The notes beneath the pieces were generated by a model, which saw only the letters and a list, made by a program, of their open reading frames with translations, searched no databases and was not told the origin of the DNA. Source: an uncultured Bacteroidales bacterium (GTDB lineage: Bacteria > Bacteroidota > Bacteroidia > Bacteroidales > ML635J-15). From it: 64,000 nucleotides of DNA. The first letter of the stretch is position 1. Every line of letters starts with the position of its first letter. Where the stretch lies: assembly GCA_905234755.1 (NCBI GenBank), contig CAJOIT010000003.1, positions 73,135 to 137,134 of the forward strand, given 5' to 3'. Shown piece by piece: positions 9,918-50,024 of this stretch. The position numbers and the translations under genes were made by a program.

Positions 9918-11324
9918 TTAGTTTGTTGGTGAATCCTCTACATTTTCCTGCTTAGCTGGATTGTTGCTTGTTATTGCTTTTACGGAGCTATTGTCCAGTA
10001 TTGTCTTTGTAGTGTTGATTCCAAGTTTTTTCATATTTTCCATTTGTGCAGCTAGGTTGCCTCTTCCGTTAAGCAATTGACCTTCGGTGTCGTGATATGT
10101 ATTGATTGCTGTATTTAACTGTTTGCCAAGTTTTTCGTAATTGTCGGCAATATTTGCGAATTTGTCGTACATTTTGGTGGCAATATCCAGTATTTCTTTG
10201 CAATTGTCCTCCTGTCGGCTGTTATGCCAAGCCTGAAGTACAAGGTGGAGTGTGAGCATAAGGTTTGTCGGATTAAGTATAATCACGCCCATTTTGTATG
10301 CTTTCATTGCCAGGTCGTTGTCGTAGTTCATGGCGAGAAGGTAGGCTCCTTCGTTAGGCACAAACATCATTACATAATTTATTGAATTTGGAACATACTT
10401 GTGGTATTCTGCATTACTGAGTTCTTTGACATGCTTAAGAACAGACTCCCAGTTGTTTTTCTTGGCAACCTCGCGTTCTTCATCGTTTTCAGCGGCCAGG
10501 TAATCATAAAATGCAGTAATTGTCACTTTTGAATCGACTATTATGTGGCTTCCATCTGCGCAGTTTATAATGACATCAGGTCTGATTGATGTGTTTTTCG
10601 CTCCAGTAAAGCATTTCTGTTTCTCAAATTCGTAGCCTTCGCGCAGACCGCTGCCTGCCAATATGGAATCGAGTACATGTTCGCCCCAGTCGCCTTGTAC
10701 TTTTCCTTTGTTATGTAAAGCATTGGCAAGATTTTCGGCTTCCTTGCCAAGTGTTTTGGAATGTTCAACCATAACATTAAAAGCTCCTTGCAGGGACGAT
10801 GTATTTTTGTCGCTAGCCGATTTTACTTCAGAAATTTCTTTTCTGACATTTTCCAGCTCTTTCAGCATTGGGCTCATAAGATTGTCCATAGTTTGCTTGT
10901 TCGACTTTGCAAAATCCTCTTGCCGTTCCTTTAGCAAGGATTGAGAGGTGTTTTCAAATTGTTCGCGCAATAATTGCATTTGTTGCTTTGACAGTTCATC
11001 GCGTTCTTCCTTTTGCTTTTCTTGTTCTTCAAGGCGCGTTTCGGCAGAAGATAGCTTACCTTGCAACTGCAATTTATCTTCCTGGAGTTTTTTGTTTTCT
11101 TCGGCAATCGAATCTTTTTCCTTTAGGAGTTCATTCGCTCTATCTTGAGCTTTTCCCAGTTCTGTTTCGATACGGATACGCTCAATGCTTGCTTCTGTCG
11201 AAATTTGGTTCTTTGAAAGTTCGAGTTGCTTGGCAAAATTCTTGTGCATATAAATTATTGCGATTGCCGCAAATGCAACTATTACAACTAATACAATTAC
11301 AAGTACTATCATAGGACAATTCAT
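9918..11324 (-). CDS. rmuC: DNA recombination protein RmuC
   Basis: A 468-residue RmuC family protein. An N-terminal membrane segment (about residues 5-25) is followed by a long coiled coil (about 35-160) and the RmuC nuclease-like core, with KVQGDWGEHVLDSILAGSGL, RPDVIINCADGSHIIVDSKV and MMFVPNEGAYL. RmuC limits DNA inversions and rearrangements in E. coli and is proposed to be a nuclease. The start at 11324 is preferred over 11402 because it leads straight into the membrane anchor. The stop is ten bases from the stop of the convergent flavoprotein gene. Confidence 0.93.
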   Translation of the reverse strand: MNCPMIVLVIVLVVIVAFAAIAIIYMHKNFAKQLELSKNQISTEASIERIRIETELGKAQDRANELLKEKDSIAEENKKLQEDKLQLQGKLSSAETRLEEQEKQKEERDELSKQQMQLLREQFENTSQSLLKERQEDFAKSNKQTMDNLMSPMLKELENVRKEISEVKSASDKNTSSLQGAFNVMVEHSKTLGKEAENLANALHNKGKVQGDWGEHVLDSILAGSGLREGYEFEKQKCFTGAKNTSIRPDVIINCADGSHIIVDSKVTITAFYDYLAAENDEEREVAKKNNWESVLKHVKELSNAEYHKYVPNSINYVMMFVPNEGAYLLAMNYDNDLAMKAYKMGVIILNPTNLMLTLHLVLQAWHNSRQEDNCKEILDIATKMYDKFANIADNYEKLGKQLNTAINTYHDTEGQLLNGRGNLAAQMENMKKLGINTTKTILDNSSVKAITSNNPAKQENVEDSPTN

Positions 11325-11403
11325 TTTTTTATAGATACGCAAATTTAATATGAAATTGCCGTGTCGCCAAATTTTATGGCAACTATTTTTATTAACAAGC
11401 AAA

Positions 11404-39480: not shown

Positions 39481-39545
39481 TAAGGACAAATGATTTTATC
39501 GTTGAGACGCATAATTTTGCGTCTGTACAATGAGAATTTAATTTG

Positions 39546-39626
39546 TTGATTATCATGGATTATGTTAGTGGCATAATGTTAATAGCATAATTTTATTAGC
39601 ATAATGTTTGTAGCATAATTTTTTAT
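39546..39626. repeat. 14-bp iteron-like array, upstream copy (five units)
   Basis: After the prefix TTGATTATCAT (39546-39556), five 14-base units start at 39557, 39571, 39585, 39599 and 39613. Four begin GCATAAT and the first GGATTAT. Unit four contains the promoter's -33 TTTG and unit five lies in its spacer. A shorter copy with the same prefix lies downstream of the gene at 41110-41162. Confidence 0.9.
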
Positions 39627-39637
39627 TGTTACATTTG
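39607..39637 (+). promoter_or_regulatory. Consensus promoter of the first ATPase, overlapped by repeats
   Basis: TTTG at 39607-39610, 19 bases, TACATTTG at 39630-39637: a full match to the phylum consensus. Because 14-bp units cover the -33 box and spacer, a protein bound to them would block or control RNA polymerase. The start codon follows at 39655, so the leader is under 15 bases. Confidence 0.88.
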
Positions 39638-39654
39638 CGGTATAAAAATGTGAT

Positions 39655-40821
39655 ATGGAAAAGATTTATAATCCGTTTATAATCAAGGGTAAAGTTCCTG
39701 CAGAATATTTTTGCGATAGGGAAAACGAAACCAAAATGCTTGTTAGTCGTATCAGGAATGGGCATAATGTAGTGGTTATGTCGCCACGAAGGATTGGAAA
39801 GACAATGCTGATTGAACATTTTTTTGATACAGAGGAAATTTCTAGCAACTATTATACATTTTTTGTTGACATATTGCATACGTCAAGTCTTGCTGAGCTT
39901 ACATATTCTCTTGGCAGACAGATATTTGACACATTGAAACCAATTGGCAGCAAAGTGCTTGACGGATTTATCCAGACGGTTCGTTCGCTTAGTGCCGAAT
40001 ATGGCTACGATGCACAAACTGGGCTGCCGAAATTCAATTTTTCGCTTGGCGCAATACGCGACCCACAATGCACTTTGGAAGAAATTTTCGAGTACATAGG
40101 CAAGGCCGACAAGCGATGCCTTGTTGCGATTGATGAGTTCCAGCAGATTGCAAACTATCCTGAAAAGAATGTCGAAGCCATATTGCGCACCCACATTCAG
40201 CACTGTTCCAATGCTGATTTTATATTCGCAGGTTCCGAAAGGCATATTCTTGAGGAGATGTTCAATTCGTATTCAAGGCCTTTTTATGCAAGTTCTTCCA
40301 TAATGATGCTTGATGAATTGCCGTTGGATAAGTACATTGAGTTTGTTGTCGAGCATTTCGCAGAATTTGGCAAAAAGATTTCGGAAAGTGATGTGGAAAA
40401 GGTTTACAAGTTATTTTCGGGCAACACCTATTGTATGCAAAAGACCTTCAATGTGGCATTTGATATGACAGAAAGGAAGTCGGCGTGTACATACGGGATT
40501 TTGTGCGATGCGATTGATGACATTTTGCTTGAAAACGAGCGGATGTTTCAGGGACAACTTTCGCAGTTGACGCCCAAGCCCAAGGAGTTGCTCTACGCTA
40601 TTGCCGTTGATGGTACTGCTGAAAGGTTGACTTCTGGTGAATTTATTCGCCGTCATCGTTTGGCATCTGCAAGTTCAGTGCAATCGGCAATAAAGCAACT
40701 GTTGGATAACGATTGGATTACATATAGTTCAAGCGAAAATGGCAACAAAACCTATTATCTTTCCAACAAATTCCTTATGCTGTGGATTCAGAAGAATTTT
40801 GGGCAATGGTATAAATTGTAA
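39655..40821 (+). CDS. AAA/STAND-type ATPase (archaeal ATPase family) bracketed by repeats
   Basis: A 388-residue P-loop ATPase of the ATPase_2/MNS type, expanded in Bacteroidota and archaea. Walker A is SPRRIGKTML (about residues 43-52), Walker B RCLVAIDEFQQI (about 155-166), and a sensor-like FIFAGSERHILEEMF follows. The C-terminal about 90 residues look like a winged helix (LTSGEFIRRHRLASASSVQS, DNDWITY), so DNA binding is plausible. Functions in the family are largely unknown. The gene stands alone, with its own repeat-overlapped promoter and a second repeat copy 289 bases after its stop. It is a distant relative of the gene at 47167. Confidence 0.88.
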   Translation: MEKIYNPFIIKGKVPAEYFCDRENETKMLVSRIRNGHNVVVMSPRRIGKTMLIEHFFDTEEISSNYYTFFVDILHTSSLAELTYSLGRQIFDTLKPIGSKVLDGFIQTVRSLSAEYGYDAQTGLPKFNFSLGAIRDPQCTLEEIFEYIGKADKRCLVAIDEFQQIANYPEKNVEAILRTHIQHCSNADFIFAGSERHILEEMFNSYSRPFYASSSIMMLDELPLDKYIEFVVEHFAEFGKKISESDVEKVYKLFSGNTYCMQKTFNVAFDMTERKSACTYGILCDAIDDILLENERMFQGQLSQLTPKPKELLYAIAVDGTAERLTSGEFIRRHRLASASSVQSAIKQLLDNDWITYSSSENGNKTYYLSNKFLMLWIQKNFGQWYKL

Positions 40822-40825
40822 TGGC

Positions 40826-41050
40826 TGACGCCCGTTTCTATGCCTTCGGCGTTTCTGGGTTTAACTTCGTTGAGGGCTGCGCCGTTCTATGCCTGCGGCG
40901 TTTCTGGGTTTCTATGCCTTCGGCGTTTCTAGGTTTCTATGCCTTCGGCGTTTCTTATTGTTTCTAGGATTCTCCGACCCCTGCGATGCACTGAGCTTGC
41001 CGAAGCGAGCCTGTCGAAGGGTGGCTGGCGCCGTTTCTATGTTTCTTTTG
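40826..41050. repeat. Micro-hairpin cluster 3
   Basis: Units GCCTTCGGC and GCCTGCGGC, each followed by GTTTCT, repeat at about 25 bases near 40850-40955. The segment at 40859-40887 matches the clusters at 20957 and 54951 (TTCGTTGAGGGCTGCGCCG). The 3' end carries GCTTGCCGAAGCGAGCCTGT, part of a very widespread bacterial interspersed repeat. Confidence 0.82.
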
Positions 41051-41073
41051 TCCCCTGTATTGGTGAACTGCCT

Positions 41074-41091
41074 CCTGAGCGGAGTCGAAGG
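41074..41091. repeat. 18-bp G+C repeat, reverse copy
   Basis: CCTGAGCGGAGTCGAAGG; its reverse complement differs by one base from 41311-41328, which lies inside the coding end of the next gene. Confidence 0.85.
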
Positions 41092-41109
41092 ACAGCATCT
41101 GATAACATA

Positions 41110-41162
41110 TTGATTATCATAGATTATGTTGATAGCATAATGCTATCAGCATAATTATTTGC
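41110..41162. repeat. 14-bp iteron-like array, downstream copy (three units)
   Basis: The prefix TTGATTATCAT (41110-41120) is identical to that at 39546. Units follow at 41121, 41135 and 41149, two of them starting GCATAAT. The middle forms a perfect palindrome, GATAGCATAATGCTATC (41131-41147). With the array at 39546 it brackets the ATPase gene as direct repeats. Confidence 0.88.
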
Positions 41163-47130: not shown

Positions 47131-47163
47131 TTACGAAAAGTTTCGTTACGAAATTTTTCGTAA
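47131..47163. repeat. Paired palindromes, downstream copy of the second ATPase bracket
   Basis: Two 14-base palindromes, ACGAAAAGTTTCGT (47133-47146) and ACGAAATTTTTCGT (47148-47161), are spaced 15 bases start to start. The 33-base block matches 48236-48268 at 29 positions. It begins three bases after the ATPase stop codon. Confidence 0.9.
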
Positions 47164-47166
47164 TAA

Positions 47167-48234
47167 CTATGAGGCGAAGTCCAAAATCCATTTCTTGAAG
47201 AACGGGTCTTCGATTTCGTAACGGTTTGAATATATCACAAGTCCCTGCTTTTGCATTTTCTTTAGTGCGCTATATATCGTACTAGTGTGCAAGTCGGTCA
47301 TTGTCAATTGAGTATCCGAAGCAAGACTTTGCAAAATTTTCTTGTCGGTACGATTCAGTCGAATCCATATTCGTTCAAAATCTAAGTTGTGTGTTTCTTC
47401 AATTTGATGTAATGCTTTGGAAAATAAGTCTGTACATTCAGGATTAATAATTGCCGTCTGCCAGATTTGCGAAGCAAGCTGTTGCGAATAATATGGGTGA
47501 CAATCGGTATAATCAAGTATTTCCTTTGTGATTTCAGTGTAATTTTGTGGCAAAATACTCTTTAACCTTGATGATATGTATTGCTCGAACTCGTTTCTTG
47601 GCAATTTGCGCAATCGCATCAGTTGTCCGAAATGGTAGAATGGTGATTTCTTCTTTTCAAAAATATCTTCCATCATCGATTCCTGGCTACCAAGCAATAT
47701 ATAATTGATGTTCTTTTGTTCTTGCATAATAGCACGCAATTGCTTGTCCAAACCAGTCTCTATTTCCAGTATCTCTTGAAACTCGTCGAGAATGACAACT
47801 AATCTATTGCTTTCATTTCCAATGTTTTCTAATGTTCCTAAAACATCTTCAAGCATCACATTTGCGTTTTTTGATGGTTGGAAACTGACTTCTACAGCAC
47901 CTGTCAATGCGTTGGTATTCAATGTCGGAATTATTCTAAAGTTGGAAATTAATCCGCGAAGTTTTTCCCGTGTATTGTGCTTGTAAACTTCAGTGAGCAA
48001 TTTTGCTGCAAAATCTTGAACCGACATAACTTTTTGCAGGTTAAGATATATGTATTTGCGTCCCGACTGCTTCACAGCCTTCAAAACGACACTGCTCTTT
48101 CCAAAACGGCGTGGACTTATAAGAATCAAATGGTTCGCACTATTGATAAACTGTTTTATATAAGCCACTTCCTCAACTCTGTCGGTAAAGAAGTCTCCTT
48201 CGACTATTGTCCCGAATTTGAATGGGTTTTCCAT
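47167..48234 (-). CDS. AAA/STAND-type ATPase bracketed by paired palindromes
   Basis: A 355-residue ATPase of the same family as the protein at 39655. Walker A SPRRFGKSSVV (about residues 39-49), Walker B RLVVILDEFQEILE, sensor-like ILLGSQESMMEDIF, and a C-terminal winged helix (about 270-355: LTMTDLHTSTIYSALKKMQ, QGLVIYSNRYEI). Sequence similarity to the first copy is low but the layout is the same. Its promoter lies within and next to the upstream repeat, and the start codon is directly at the repeat edge, so no room is left for a standard RBS. It is convergent with nothing; the S41 gene follows on the same strand. Confidence 0.88.
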   Translation of the reverse strand: MENPFKFGTIVEGDFFTDRVEEVAYIKQFINSANHLILISPRRFGKSSVVLKAVKQSGRKYIYLNLQKVMSVQDFAAKLLTEVYKHNTREKLRGLISNFRIIPTLNTNALTGAVEVSFQPSKNANVMLEDVLGTLENIGNESNRLVVILDEFQEILEIETGLDKQLRAIMQEQKNINYILLGSQESMMEDIFEKKKSPFYHFGQLMRLRKLPRNEFEQYISSRLKSILPQNYTEITKEILDYTDCHPYYSQQLASQIWQTAIINPECTDLFSKALHQIEETHNLDFERIWIRLNRTDKKILQSLASDTQLTMTDLHTSTIYSALKKMQKQGLVIYSNRYEIEDPFFKKWILDFAS

Positions 48235-48235
48235 A

Positions 48236-48268
48236 TTACGACTTTTTTCGTTACGAAATTTTTCGTAA
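48236..48268. repeat. Paired palindromes, upstream copy of the second ATPase bracket
   Basis: ACGACTTTTTTCGT (48238-48251) and ACGAAATTTTTCGT (48253-48266), again 15 bases apart start to start, in the same orientation as at 47131. The block covers the expected transcription start and leader of the ATPase gene, whose ATG is at 48234. Confidence 0.9.
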
Positions 48269-48296
48269 AGGTATGAATATTTTTCTTAACGGCAAA
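48266..48296 (-). promoter_or_regulatory. Promoter of the second ATPase
   Basis: On the minus strand TTTG (48296-48293), exactly 19 bases, then TACCTTTA (48273-48266), one base off the TAnnTTTG consensus. Transcription should start inside the paired palindromes, the usual position for a repressor site. Confidence 0.72.
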
Positions 48297-48512: not shown

Positions 48513-50024
48513 TTAAAAATGAATACCAAAATTTAGAGATATAGCAATATTTCCTATGGGAACTGCTTCTAAAAACATATAGAAATGATTCTTTGTAGCA
48601 AAACCTATACGCAATCCCATTCCTGCAGTAGGTGATCCAGTAGTATGTGAATTATACCAGTTGATATCAATCCCTGTGCCTAAATATAATGACATTTTAT
48701 TGAAGTTAATGAGAGCCAAAGGACCAAATCCTACATCTGGAAAACCTCCGAATAAATAAAAACCAAGGTTTAATTTTCTGTTGGCAGGAAAAGCAACGTC
48801 TAGTCCCAGTGAGCCTCTAGGCAGAATCTGGGTACTTAACCTATCTATACCATCAGAACTCCTCCGCCAAACTCTTGAAATAGATAATCCTGCACCAAAA
48901 TTTATTCCTAAAAATAATTCTTTACGTTCCTTATTTTTCTGCGGATAAGTCCATGCCACTTGTCCCTTGAACGAGTTTGGAACATAGCAGTTCAGCACTC
49001 GCCATTCGTTGATAAGACTTAATGCAATATTCTCAAAGTCGTTGCTCAGTTCCGAAATGCTACCAAGCAGCTTAAAGTCGCCAAGGCTTTCGCCAACGCT
49101 CTTGAACTTCCCCAACTGTGCCGTTGAAATTATATCGTCGCCCTGCACGCCCCTAATCAACGAGCGCAACGGCACTCCGTTTATCTGCCTGTCGGTCTTT
49201 TTGAGTACTTCCTTATAGTAGTCGTCTGCCGTAAAAATGTTTCTTTCCGCATCGCGTGAAGTCTGGTCAAGACCGTCGGTGAATGTTACCATCATGGCGG
49301 TTGACAGCGGCTGTTCTGGCGAAATGGATGTCTTGCAATATTCTTCCACAATGTCAATCGACTTGTCCATGGCATAGTATAGCGCTGTTCCGTTCTGCAT
49401 CGAAAGGCCGTTTATGAAGCGTTCAATCTCCGAGTACGAACCACTTGTCAAAGGTCTTATGTCCAAAAATTTAGTTTCGTTTATTTTTGAGAATGACACT
49501 ATACCTATTTTTATATTTCCACCCTTTGAAGCATTAAGCAGGTTTCTTGCGAAGTTCTTTGCGGCCTCCTGCACAAACTTGAAATCCTCGCCCAATGATG
49601 TCGAGCAGTCGAGCACAAGCATTACAACCATCGACTTTGTCTCTTCCATACCAGCACTGCCTTGCCGTGTTTCTACGTCGGGCTGCCATTCGTTAATCGA
49701 CTCGTCGTAACGCCAGAAATCCAATTTGGTTTCAATGCCATCGGGATAGTCGGTCTTAACGTGCGAAAACTGGAAAAGCACATCTTCCTTGTCCGTCTCC
49801 TTGCCAGTTATAAATTTTCCCGGGTCCTTGAATGTTATGCCCTTGCTGCTTATATCGCTCAACTTGTAAACTGGCTTTCCCGCATTTCCCATTTCGATTG
49901 AAAGATTTCCCTTTATGAAATAGTTAGCCTTGTCGGGATTGGTACGAACATTCTGCGCTTCAACAAAATATGACACAACAAATAAACTTAGTGCCAACAG
50001 CAGAAAACTCTTTAAGTTTTTCAT
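48513..50024 (-). CDS. von Willebrand A domain protein with C-terminal barrel-like region
   Basis: A 503-residue exported protein; signal peptide residues 1-23 (ending YFVEAQ). A beta-rich domain is followed by a vWA domain at about 128-315 with the metal-site motif VLDCSTSLGED (D138-x-S-x-S) and the conserved threonine and aspartate of NGTALYYAMD and TFTDGLD. The last about 150 residues show alternating hydrophobic residues and glycines ending in a phenylalanine (SLNFGIHF), typical of an outer-membrane barrel or OmpA-like end. The combination of vWA and barrel is unusual; vWA modules bind protein ligands, so a surface-assembly or adhesion role is likely. Confidence 0.82.
   Translation of the reverse strand: MKNLKSFLLLALSLFVVSYFVEAQNVRTNPDKANYFIKGNLSIEMGNAGKPVYKLSDISSKGITFKDPGKFITGKETDKEDVLFQFSHVKTDYPDGIETKLDFWRYDESINEWQPDVETRQGSAGMEETKSMVVMLVLDCSTSLGEDFKFVQEAAKNFARNLLNASKGGNIKIGIVSFSKINETKFLDIRPLTSGSYSEIERFINGLSMQNGTALYYAMDKSIDIVEEYCKTSISPEQPLSTAMMVTFTDGLDQTSRDAERNIFTADDYYKEVLKKTDRQINGVPLRSLIRGVQGDDIISTAQLGKFKSVGESLGDFKLLGSISELSNDFENIALSLINEWRVLNCYVPNSFKGQVAWTYPQKNKERKELFLGINFGAGLSISRVWRRSSDGIDRLSTQILPRGSLGLDVAFPANRKLNLGFYLFGGFPDVGFGPLALINFNKMSLYLGTGIDINWYNSHTTGSPTAGMGLRIGFATKNHFYMFLEAVPIGNIAISLNFGIHF

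What the first reader, a model, noticed from the sequence alone, without database searches (positions are those of the whole stretch)
47131..48268. Second ATPase gene bracketed by paired palindromes
The same design recurs with different bases: a 33-base block of two palindromes (ACGAAA and TTTCGT arms, 15-bp spacing) lies three bases after the stop codon and again one base before the start codon, 29 of 33 bases identical. The upstream block sits where transcription should begin. The gene plus brackets (47131-48268) looks like a minimal cassette: an ATPase, its operator and a copy of the operator at the other end.
Basis: partly seen in the sequence, partly recalled or inferred. Interest (0 to 1): 0.7.

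Follow-up and report, generated by a model that had tools for sequence, protein, structure and literature searches.

The report
ATPase cassette bounded by own operator
In a group of Bacteroidales bacteria a gene for an ATPase carries the same paired palindrome at both ends, and seven close relatives that lack the gene keep one copy of the palindrome at the matching spot, so the gene likely comes and goes as a small cassette that would use its own control site as its address.

Summary
In detail: two 33-nt paired-palindrome blocks (29/33 identical) bracket an ATPase_2 gene (47167-48234, minus strand), far beyond chance. It is not a one-off: of 99 ATPase_2 genes of the genus, 34 genes in 11 of 27 clades share a palindromic segment between their two flanks (control 2 of 600), each clade with its own motif. 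The upstream block is the conserved part: 62 of 68 Bacteroidales relatives have it, 17 have it downstream (control 2 of 1198 windows). Here it overlaps the promoter's -7 box, so it is likely an operator. At this site 3 of 11 close genomes have block-gene-block, 7 have one solo block and no gene, 1 has neither. Between two genomes the gene is 99.3% identical while the next gene is 85.0%, similarity falling off at the blocks. Solo/filled alleles recur at two loci of a 55% relative and with an unrelated motif, where the ATPase occupies either of two block sites. No recombinase is encoded; binding by the ATPase and how blocks recombine are inferred. Genome order is fluid here, so lost synteny alone proves little. 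Best reading: a mobile single-gene cassette whose ends are copies of its own operator.

The parts
47167..48234 (-). ATPase_2 (PF01637) gene, 355 aa, AAA+/STAND-type ATPase with a C-terminal winged-helix-like region
   Evidence: PF01637 42.9 bits, cut-off 33.2; HTH_24 16.8 bits, below its cut-off 21.9; 2fna, 2qen
48236..48268 (-). upstream block (two palindromes, 15-nt period), ends one base before the ATG; likely operator
48267..48295 (-). promoter-like TTG-N19-TACCTTT of the Bacteroidota kind (consensus recalled); its -7 box overlaps the first two bases of the upstream block
   Evidence: -61 to -33 from the ATG; consensus match only
47131..47163 (-). downstream block, three bases after the stop codon; seven relatives without the gene have a single such block at the site
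47131..48268 (-). whole unit block-gene-block; near-identical between G000 and G020 while flanks differ

Best explanation
The unit at 47131-48268 is an ATPase gene with one 33-base paired palindrome at each end, it sits where seven of eleven close genomes have a single such block and no gene, and it is likely a mobile single-gene cassette whose ends are copies of the ATPase's own predicted operator. Shown: block-gene-block versus solo block at the same site; a unit nearly identical between two genomes whose flanks have diverged; the same filled/solo pattern at other loci and with an unrelated block sequence; a block motif that goes with the protein clade. Inferred: the winged-helix end of the ATPase binds the upstream block and controls its own promoter, whose -7 box the block overlaps. 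Inferred: recombination between block copies removes the gene (leaving one block) or, with incoming DNA or an excised block+gene circle, inserts it at a solo block (giving two). Who catalyses it is open: ordinary homologous recombination or slippage between ~33-nt repeats is enough for loss; for gain a host recombination pathway is the simplest choice, since the unit encodes no recombinase.
For: S41-peptidase site: filled G000, G011, G020; solo block G002, G008, G009, G019, G021, G022, G023; neither G007 (11 of the 26 genus genomes examined, those with the S41 gene at >=90% identity; in G021 the glycosyltransferase and the S41 leader flank the block on one contig, the S41 gene being on another). 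Filled genomes are scattered on the tree of the flanking genes, G020 being sister to solo G019 (0.994). G000-G020: ATPase 99.3% versus S41 85.0%; 38-40 of 40 identical in every 40-nt window from the upstream block through the downstream block, 24/40 and 12/40 in the two windows upstream of it, 34/40, 25/40 and 22/40 in the next three downstream. 55%-identical relatives: locus A filled in 6 and solo in 2 (G009, G019) of the 8 genomes compared, the solo flanks matching filled G020/G024 on both sides; locus B filled in G007 and G011 and holding a decayed block in G021 and G023; homology between the two loci starts at the first base of the left block pattern and ends 4 nt (G022 versus G007) or 24 nt (versus G011) past the right one. 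Unrelated motif TTATTCAATTTGCATTATTCAAAATGAATAA: ATPase at the site before RhuM-Fic in G019, G020, G022 with a solo block at the site before fusA; in G009 the ATPase sits at the fusA site; G009's gene is 92.5-93.9% identical to those three, as fusA is (93.0-93.6%), so it does not look like an old duplicate. A fourth motif has a solo block at one shared intergenic place in two genomes. Bracketing: 34 of 99 genes, 11 of 27 clades, control 2 of 600. Motif-clade link: upstream core within 2 substitutions in 62 of 68 relatives of >=280 bits, 0 of 8 more distant ones, control 2 of 1198 windows.
Against: No recombinase in the unit and no binding data. The promoter-bearing left flank outside the upstream block is shared by the three filled genomes and absent from the solo ones, so in at least one case the exchanged piece was longer than block-gene-block, or the promoter decayed after loss. 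The block is not at one fixed distance from the S41 gene: 74-75 nt in G000, G002, G008, G009, G020, G022 but 155-156 nt in G011, G019, G023, with different spacers. In G007 a 29-codon 3' remnant of the gene with one block lies by an aspartokinase gene, where none of the 11 other genomes scanned shows a block, two of them with shortened flanks: an insertion away from a visible block, or a lost block. Genome order is fluid here: 72 of 112 ATPase pairs within the close genomes share neither flank, 14 of 51 if the genes are >=85% identical; control genes give 0 of 36, 0 of 45, 14 of 45 and 16 of 36, so lost synteny alone proves little. S41 may be a fast comparator: the OAT gene is 95.9% identical in the G000-G020 pair. 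At locus A the right flank itself differs among genomes, and its genes diverge about as the flanks do, i.e. look vertically inherited. In 16 of 27 clades no bracket was detected, and 51 of 68 named relatives lack a downstream copy within 130 nt. At the RhuM site the identity break between G019 and G020 is inside RhuM, not at a block. For the third locus RhuM rather than the ATPase could have moved.
Confidence: 0.57

Rival explanations
1. Ordinary autoregulated gene: the blocks are operators only. The upstream one controls the ATPase, the downstream one controls or insulates the next gene; solo blocks are operators left after gene deletion or bound in trans by a paralogue.
For: The upstream block overlaps the promoter and is widespread in the clade (62 of 68); in L230 promoter plus block is repeated in front of the next gene; the seven solo blocks at the S41 site keep 0-2 mismatches to the 28 fixed positions of the pattern although the gene is absent.
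Against: Does not by itself explain why the gene-less state carries one block at several loci and with two unrelated motifs, nor the 99.3% versus 85.0% identity with edges at the blocks.
Confidence: 0.25
2. The blocks are sites of a host site-specific recombinase (like Xer/dif modules), and the ATPase is only one of several cargo genes.
For: Works like dif modules: genes between short direct sites; another gene (RhuM-Fic) also lies between two blocks in several genomes.
Against: Each ATPase clade has its own block sequence, which one host recombinase would hardly read; block motif and ATPase clade go together across Bacteroidales.
Confidence: 0.1
3. The blocks are RNA-level features: a 3' hairpin that ends or protects the transcript, duplicated by chance upstream.
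For: The downstream block folds at -14.8 kcal/mol, z -4.9.
Against: Not called as a terminator; a palindrome folds by construction; the upstream copy is the conserved one.
Confidence: 0.05

Closest known systems
Archaeal ATPase_2 family (PF01637), solved members SSO1545 (2fna) and PABY2304 (2qen); MNS group of STAND ATPases (group name recalled)
   Different: Bracketing paired palindromes and solo sites were not found described for it in the papers searched (the library lacks most subscription papers).
Orc1/Cdc6 initiators with origin recognition boxes (boxes recalled)
   Different: No origin features were tested; here the sites bracket the gene and are found vacated.
dif modules of Acinetobacter plasmids (PMC13141974, abstract and outline seen)
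   Same: Genes between short recombination sites, shuffled as modules; most of the plasmids there carry a toxin-antitoxin module.
   Different: One kind of site (pdif, read by XerC/XerD, recalled) for all modules; here every bracketed ATPase clade has a private site, and the unit was seen in chromosome-like contigs.
RAYT/REPIN (PMC3116915, listing and start of abstract seen)
   Same: A single gene bracketed by paired palindromes (architecture recalled).
   Different: No tyrosine transposase; the block pattern occurs 1 to 4 times in the 11 of 26 genomes that have it, not in high copy.

Membership tests
ATPase_2 (PF01637) | score above the curated Pfam cut-off | tested here: met
   42.9 bits versus 33.2
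STAND/ORC-type AAA+ with winged helix | fold | tested here: inconclusive
Insertion sequence / transposon | encodes a transposase | tested here: not met
   the only gene between the blocks is an ATPase; no transposase family among its 9 Pfam hits up to E = 1
Insertion sequence / transposon | target-site duplication | tested here: inconclusive
   by eye the only duplication is the block itself
RAYT/REPIN | Y1 tyrosine transposase | tested here: not met
   not among the Pfam hits
dif modules | one common site sequence for all modules | tested here: not met
   block sequence differs from clade to clade; the dif motif itself was not searched for
Integron cassette | integrase gene and attC sites | not tested
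   no integrase in the unit itself; the genome was not searched
Autoregulated operator system | protein binds the block | not testable with these tools
   position and clade conservation only
Known anti-phage defence systems (PADLOC) | match to a system protein | tested here: inconclusive
   partial weak hits to candidate families PDC-S01 (3.7e-6, 60 residues) and PDC-S27 (2.2e-4)

The most novel reading that the evidence does not exclude
A class of self-addressed single-gene elements: an ORC-like ATPase recognises its own operator, uses it as attachment site, and itself directs insertion of the gene at any solo copy; each ATPase clade has evolved a private address, so many non-interfering lines of the same element share one genome.
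Probability: 0.2. Interest if true: 0.88.

Novelty: new variant of a known kind. Interest (0 to 1): 0.7.

Why it matters
ATPase_2 genes are multiplied in many bacteria and archaea without a known role (recalled). If their ends are copies of their own operators and double as recombination sites, both open questions become testable: what they bind (a predicted site for each clade, by gel shift) and how they spread (block-block recombination, by long reads). A mobile unit with no recombinase, carrying only a likely DNA-binding ATPase and its address, would be a very small kind of mobile cassette.

Tried and rejected
Dispersed REP-like repeat: rejected, the block pattern occurs 0 to 4 times per genome in 26 genomes and the reversed control never. 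Xer/dif as sole explanation: disfavoured, see rivals. Intrinsic terminator: not called. Plasmid or phage vehicle: only distant relatives (22-26% identity in the 10 rows listed, of 26 plasmid and 2 phage records). Lost synteny as proof of mobility: my first counts (118 of 178; 110 of 165 and 68 of 111; control 0 of 45) used a filter that missed flank matches starting within 100 nt of the gene; the corrected counts, with four control genes, are used instead and take that argument away. RhuM exchange as block-bounded: withdrawn, the identity break is inside the gene. The first repeat survey (54 of 99) included long dispersed repeats, with a 130-nt window and a palindrome requirement, replaces it. 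NCBIfam gave nothing above a cut-off. Paper searches for the arrangement listed no paper that describes it; the library lacks most subscription papers, and the SSO1545 structure paper is not held.

Full report
What was claimed and what is there. The sequence bears this out: two 33-nt blocks, 29 of 33 identical, one base before the ATG and three bases after the stop of a 355-aa gene on the minus strand. Chance is excluded by shuffling and by the genome: the two-palindrome pattern with up to 3 mismatches has three places in 3.3 Mb, the two brackets and one solo block at G000:C3:228284, and none for the reversed pattern.

The upstream block is the constant part. Of the 68, 53 have the exact CGA-N6-TCG-N3-CGA-N6-TCG core within 130 nt upstream and 16 downstream; with two substitutions allowed, 62 and 17. 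The 8 more distant ones have none, and 130-nt windows elsewhere in the same loci give 0 of 1198 (exact) and 2 of 1198. The named set is not fully independent of the genus set: by equal contig length, 6 of the 17 loci with a downstream block (L218, L234, L236, L238, L239, L240) are the G011, G024, G011, G020, G022 and G021 copies; 11 are others. In the window a TTG-N19-TACCTTT promoter-like sequence ends inside the block; TAnnTTTG lies in the 22 nt before the core (or overlaps it) in 24 of 55 loci with an exact forward core. This is what an autoregulatory operator would look like.

Other clades have the same design with other letters. From the hits, 100 distinct ATPase_2 genes plus the window's own copy fall into 27 clades; 99 had usable flanks. 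34 genes in 11 of 27 clades share a palindromic segment between the 130 nt upstream and the 130 nt downstream (2 of 600 mismatched pairs between clades). Examples: TATACATTNATGTAT repeats, ACTATCTATTTTGCATAATGCAAAATAGATAGT, GCAGCACTTTTGGTGCAGCACCAAAAGTGC, TTATTCAATTTGCATTATTCAAAATGAATAA.

The empty site. All 26 genus genomes have an S41-peptidase match. In the 11 close genomes (S41 at 90% or more) the ATPase site between the glycosyltransferase and the S41 gene is filled in 3 (G000, G011, G020), carries one solo block in 7 (G002, G008, G009, G019, G021, G022, G023) and neither in 1 (G007). The other 15 genomes were not examined at this site. The nearest block edge lies 74-75 nt from the S41 gene in G000, G002, G008, G009, G020 and G022 but 155-156 nt in G011, G019 and G023, so the spacer differs between lineages. 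On the tree of the flanking genes the filled genomes are scattered (effectively S41 and glycosyltransferase, since the other genes were missing from most stretches). G000 and G020 share the ATPase at 99.3% but S41 at 85.0%; windows of 40 nt are 38-40 identical from the upstream block through the downstream block and fall to 24 and 12 upstream and 34, 25 and 22 downstream. This looks like recent transfer of the unit. OAT, another core gene, is 95.9% in this pair, so 85% is not the only yardstick, but 99.3% exceeds it too.

More loci. The 55% relatives (motif TTGCG...) sit at locus A in G002 and G020-G024 and at locus B in G007 and G011; the homology between loci is the cassette, G022 10123-11331 versus G007 and 10123-11351 versus G011, with the outer block patterns at 10123-10153 and 11297-11327. 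Locus A is solo in G009 and G019 with both flanks matching filled G020/G024. Locus B holds a decayed block in G021 and G023 with homologous flanks (81% on one side, 71 and 69% on the other); the six other genomes displayed have, by eye, different neighbours there. With the unrelated TTATTC motif, 9 of 26 genomes match: ATPase at site 1 and solo block at site 2 in G019, G020, G022; ATPase at site 2 in G009; both sites solo in G023; half a block at site 1 and solo at site 2 in G011 and G021; G007 has the bracketed ATPase without RhuM; G008 has one block beside RhuM elsewhere. RhuM here is a RhuM-Fic protein. Either the ATPase or the RhuM piece moved, in both cases with the break at a block. A fourth motif has a solo block at the same intergenic place in G011 and G022. 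The S41-type block is also solo beside an outer-membrane-like gene (by eye) in both G000 and G007.

Results against. Synteny is loose in this genus: after a correction, 72 of 112 ATPase pairs in the close genomes share neither flank (14 of 51 for genes at least 85% identical), while control genes give OAT 0 of 36, acyl-CoA dehydrogenase 0 of 45, S41 14 of 45 and aspartokinase 16 of 36 (the last two stand beside such insertion sites). The G007 remnant lies where none of the 11 other genomes scanned shows a block. The promoter outside the upstream block exists only in the filled genomes. At locus A genes and flanks diverge alike. In 16 of 27 clades no bracket was detected.

Mechanism. Loss by recombination between two block copies explains the solo sites and needs no special enzyme. 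Gain at a solo block is suggested by the G000/G020 transfer and by the two alternative sites of the third locus; the simplest route is host recombination of incoming DNA, or of a block+gene circle, with the solo block. That the ATPase directs this is the bold reading and is untested.

Verdict. A real and general architecture, best called a mobile single-gene cassette bounded by copies of its own likely operator; it works like dif modules and integron cassettes but is not filed as either. On checking, the confidence was lowered by 0.01 because the fair comparison of synteny (14 of 51) lies within the control range.

Noticed in passing
39540-41160: The first ATPase (39655-40821) is flanked by 14-nt-period CATAAT/ATTATG repeats, more upstream than downstream; its relatives L115 and L117 show the same motif in both flanks.
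   Followed up: partly
L131 (G007), upstream of the S41 gene: The one close genome with neither gene nor block has instead a tandem array containing CGACTTCGGAGAAGTCG palindromes at this site.
   Followed up: no
L346 4939-5919 (minus strand) and orthologues: A RhuM-Fic fusion protein (PF13310 + PF02661) lies between two ATPase-type blocks in several genomes and is itself mosaic between genomes.
   Followed up: partly
left of locus A (L208-L213, L216, L217): A short palindromic repeat GGGACGCAATGCATTGCGTCCC or a close variant stands beside locus A in the eight genomes shown.
   Followed up: no
L230: An 85-bp direct repeat containing promoter and block stands before the ATPase and before the next gene, perhaps an aminotransferase (guessed by eye from its first residues).
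   Followed up: no
G000 genome: 15 ATPase_2 genes reach the Pfam cut-off; 4 are short-form relatives of the query, the other 11 have open frames of 444-503 codons and were not examined for brackets.
   Followed up: no
48513-50024: A gene that looks by eye like a von Willebrand A-type protein stands between the ATPase and the glycosyltransferase in the window genome and in none of the 9 others compared there.
   Followed up: no
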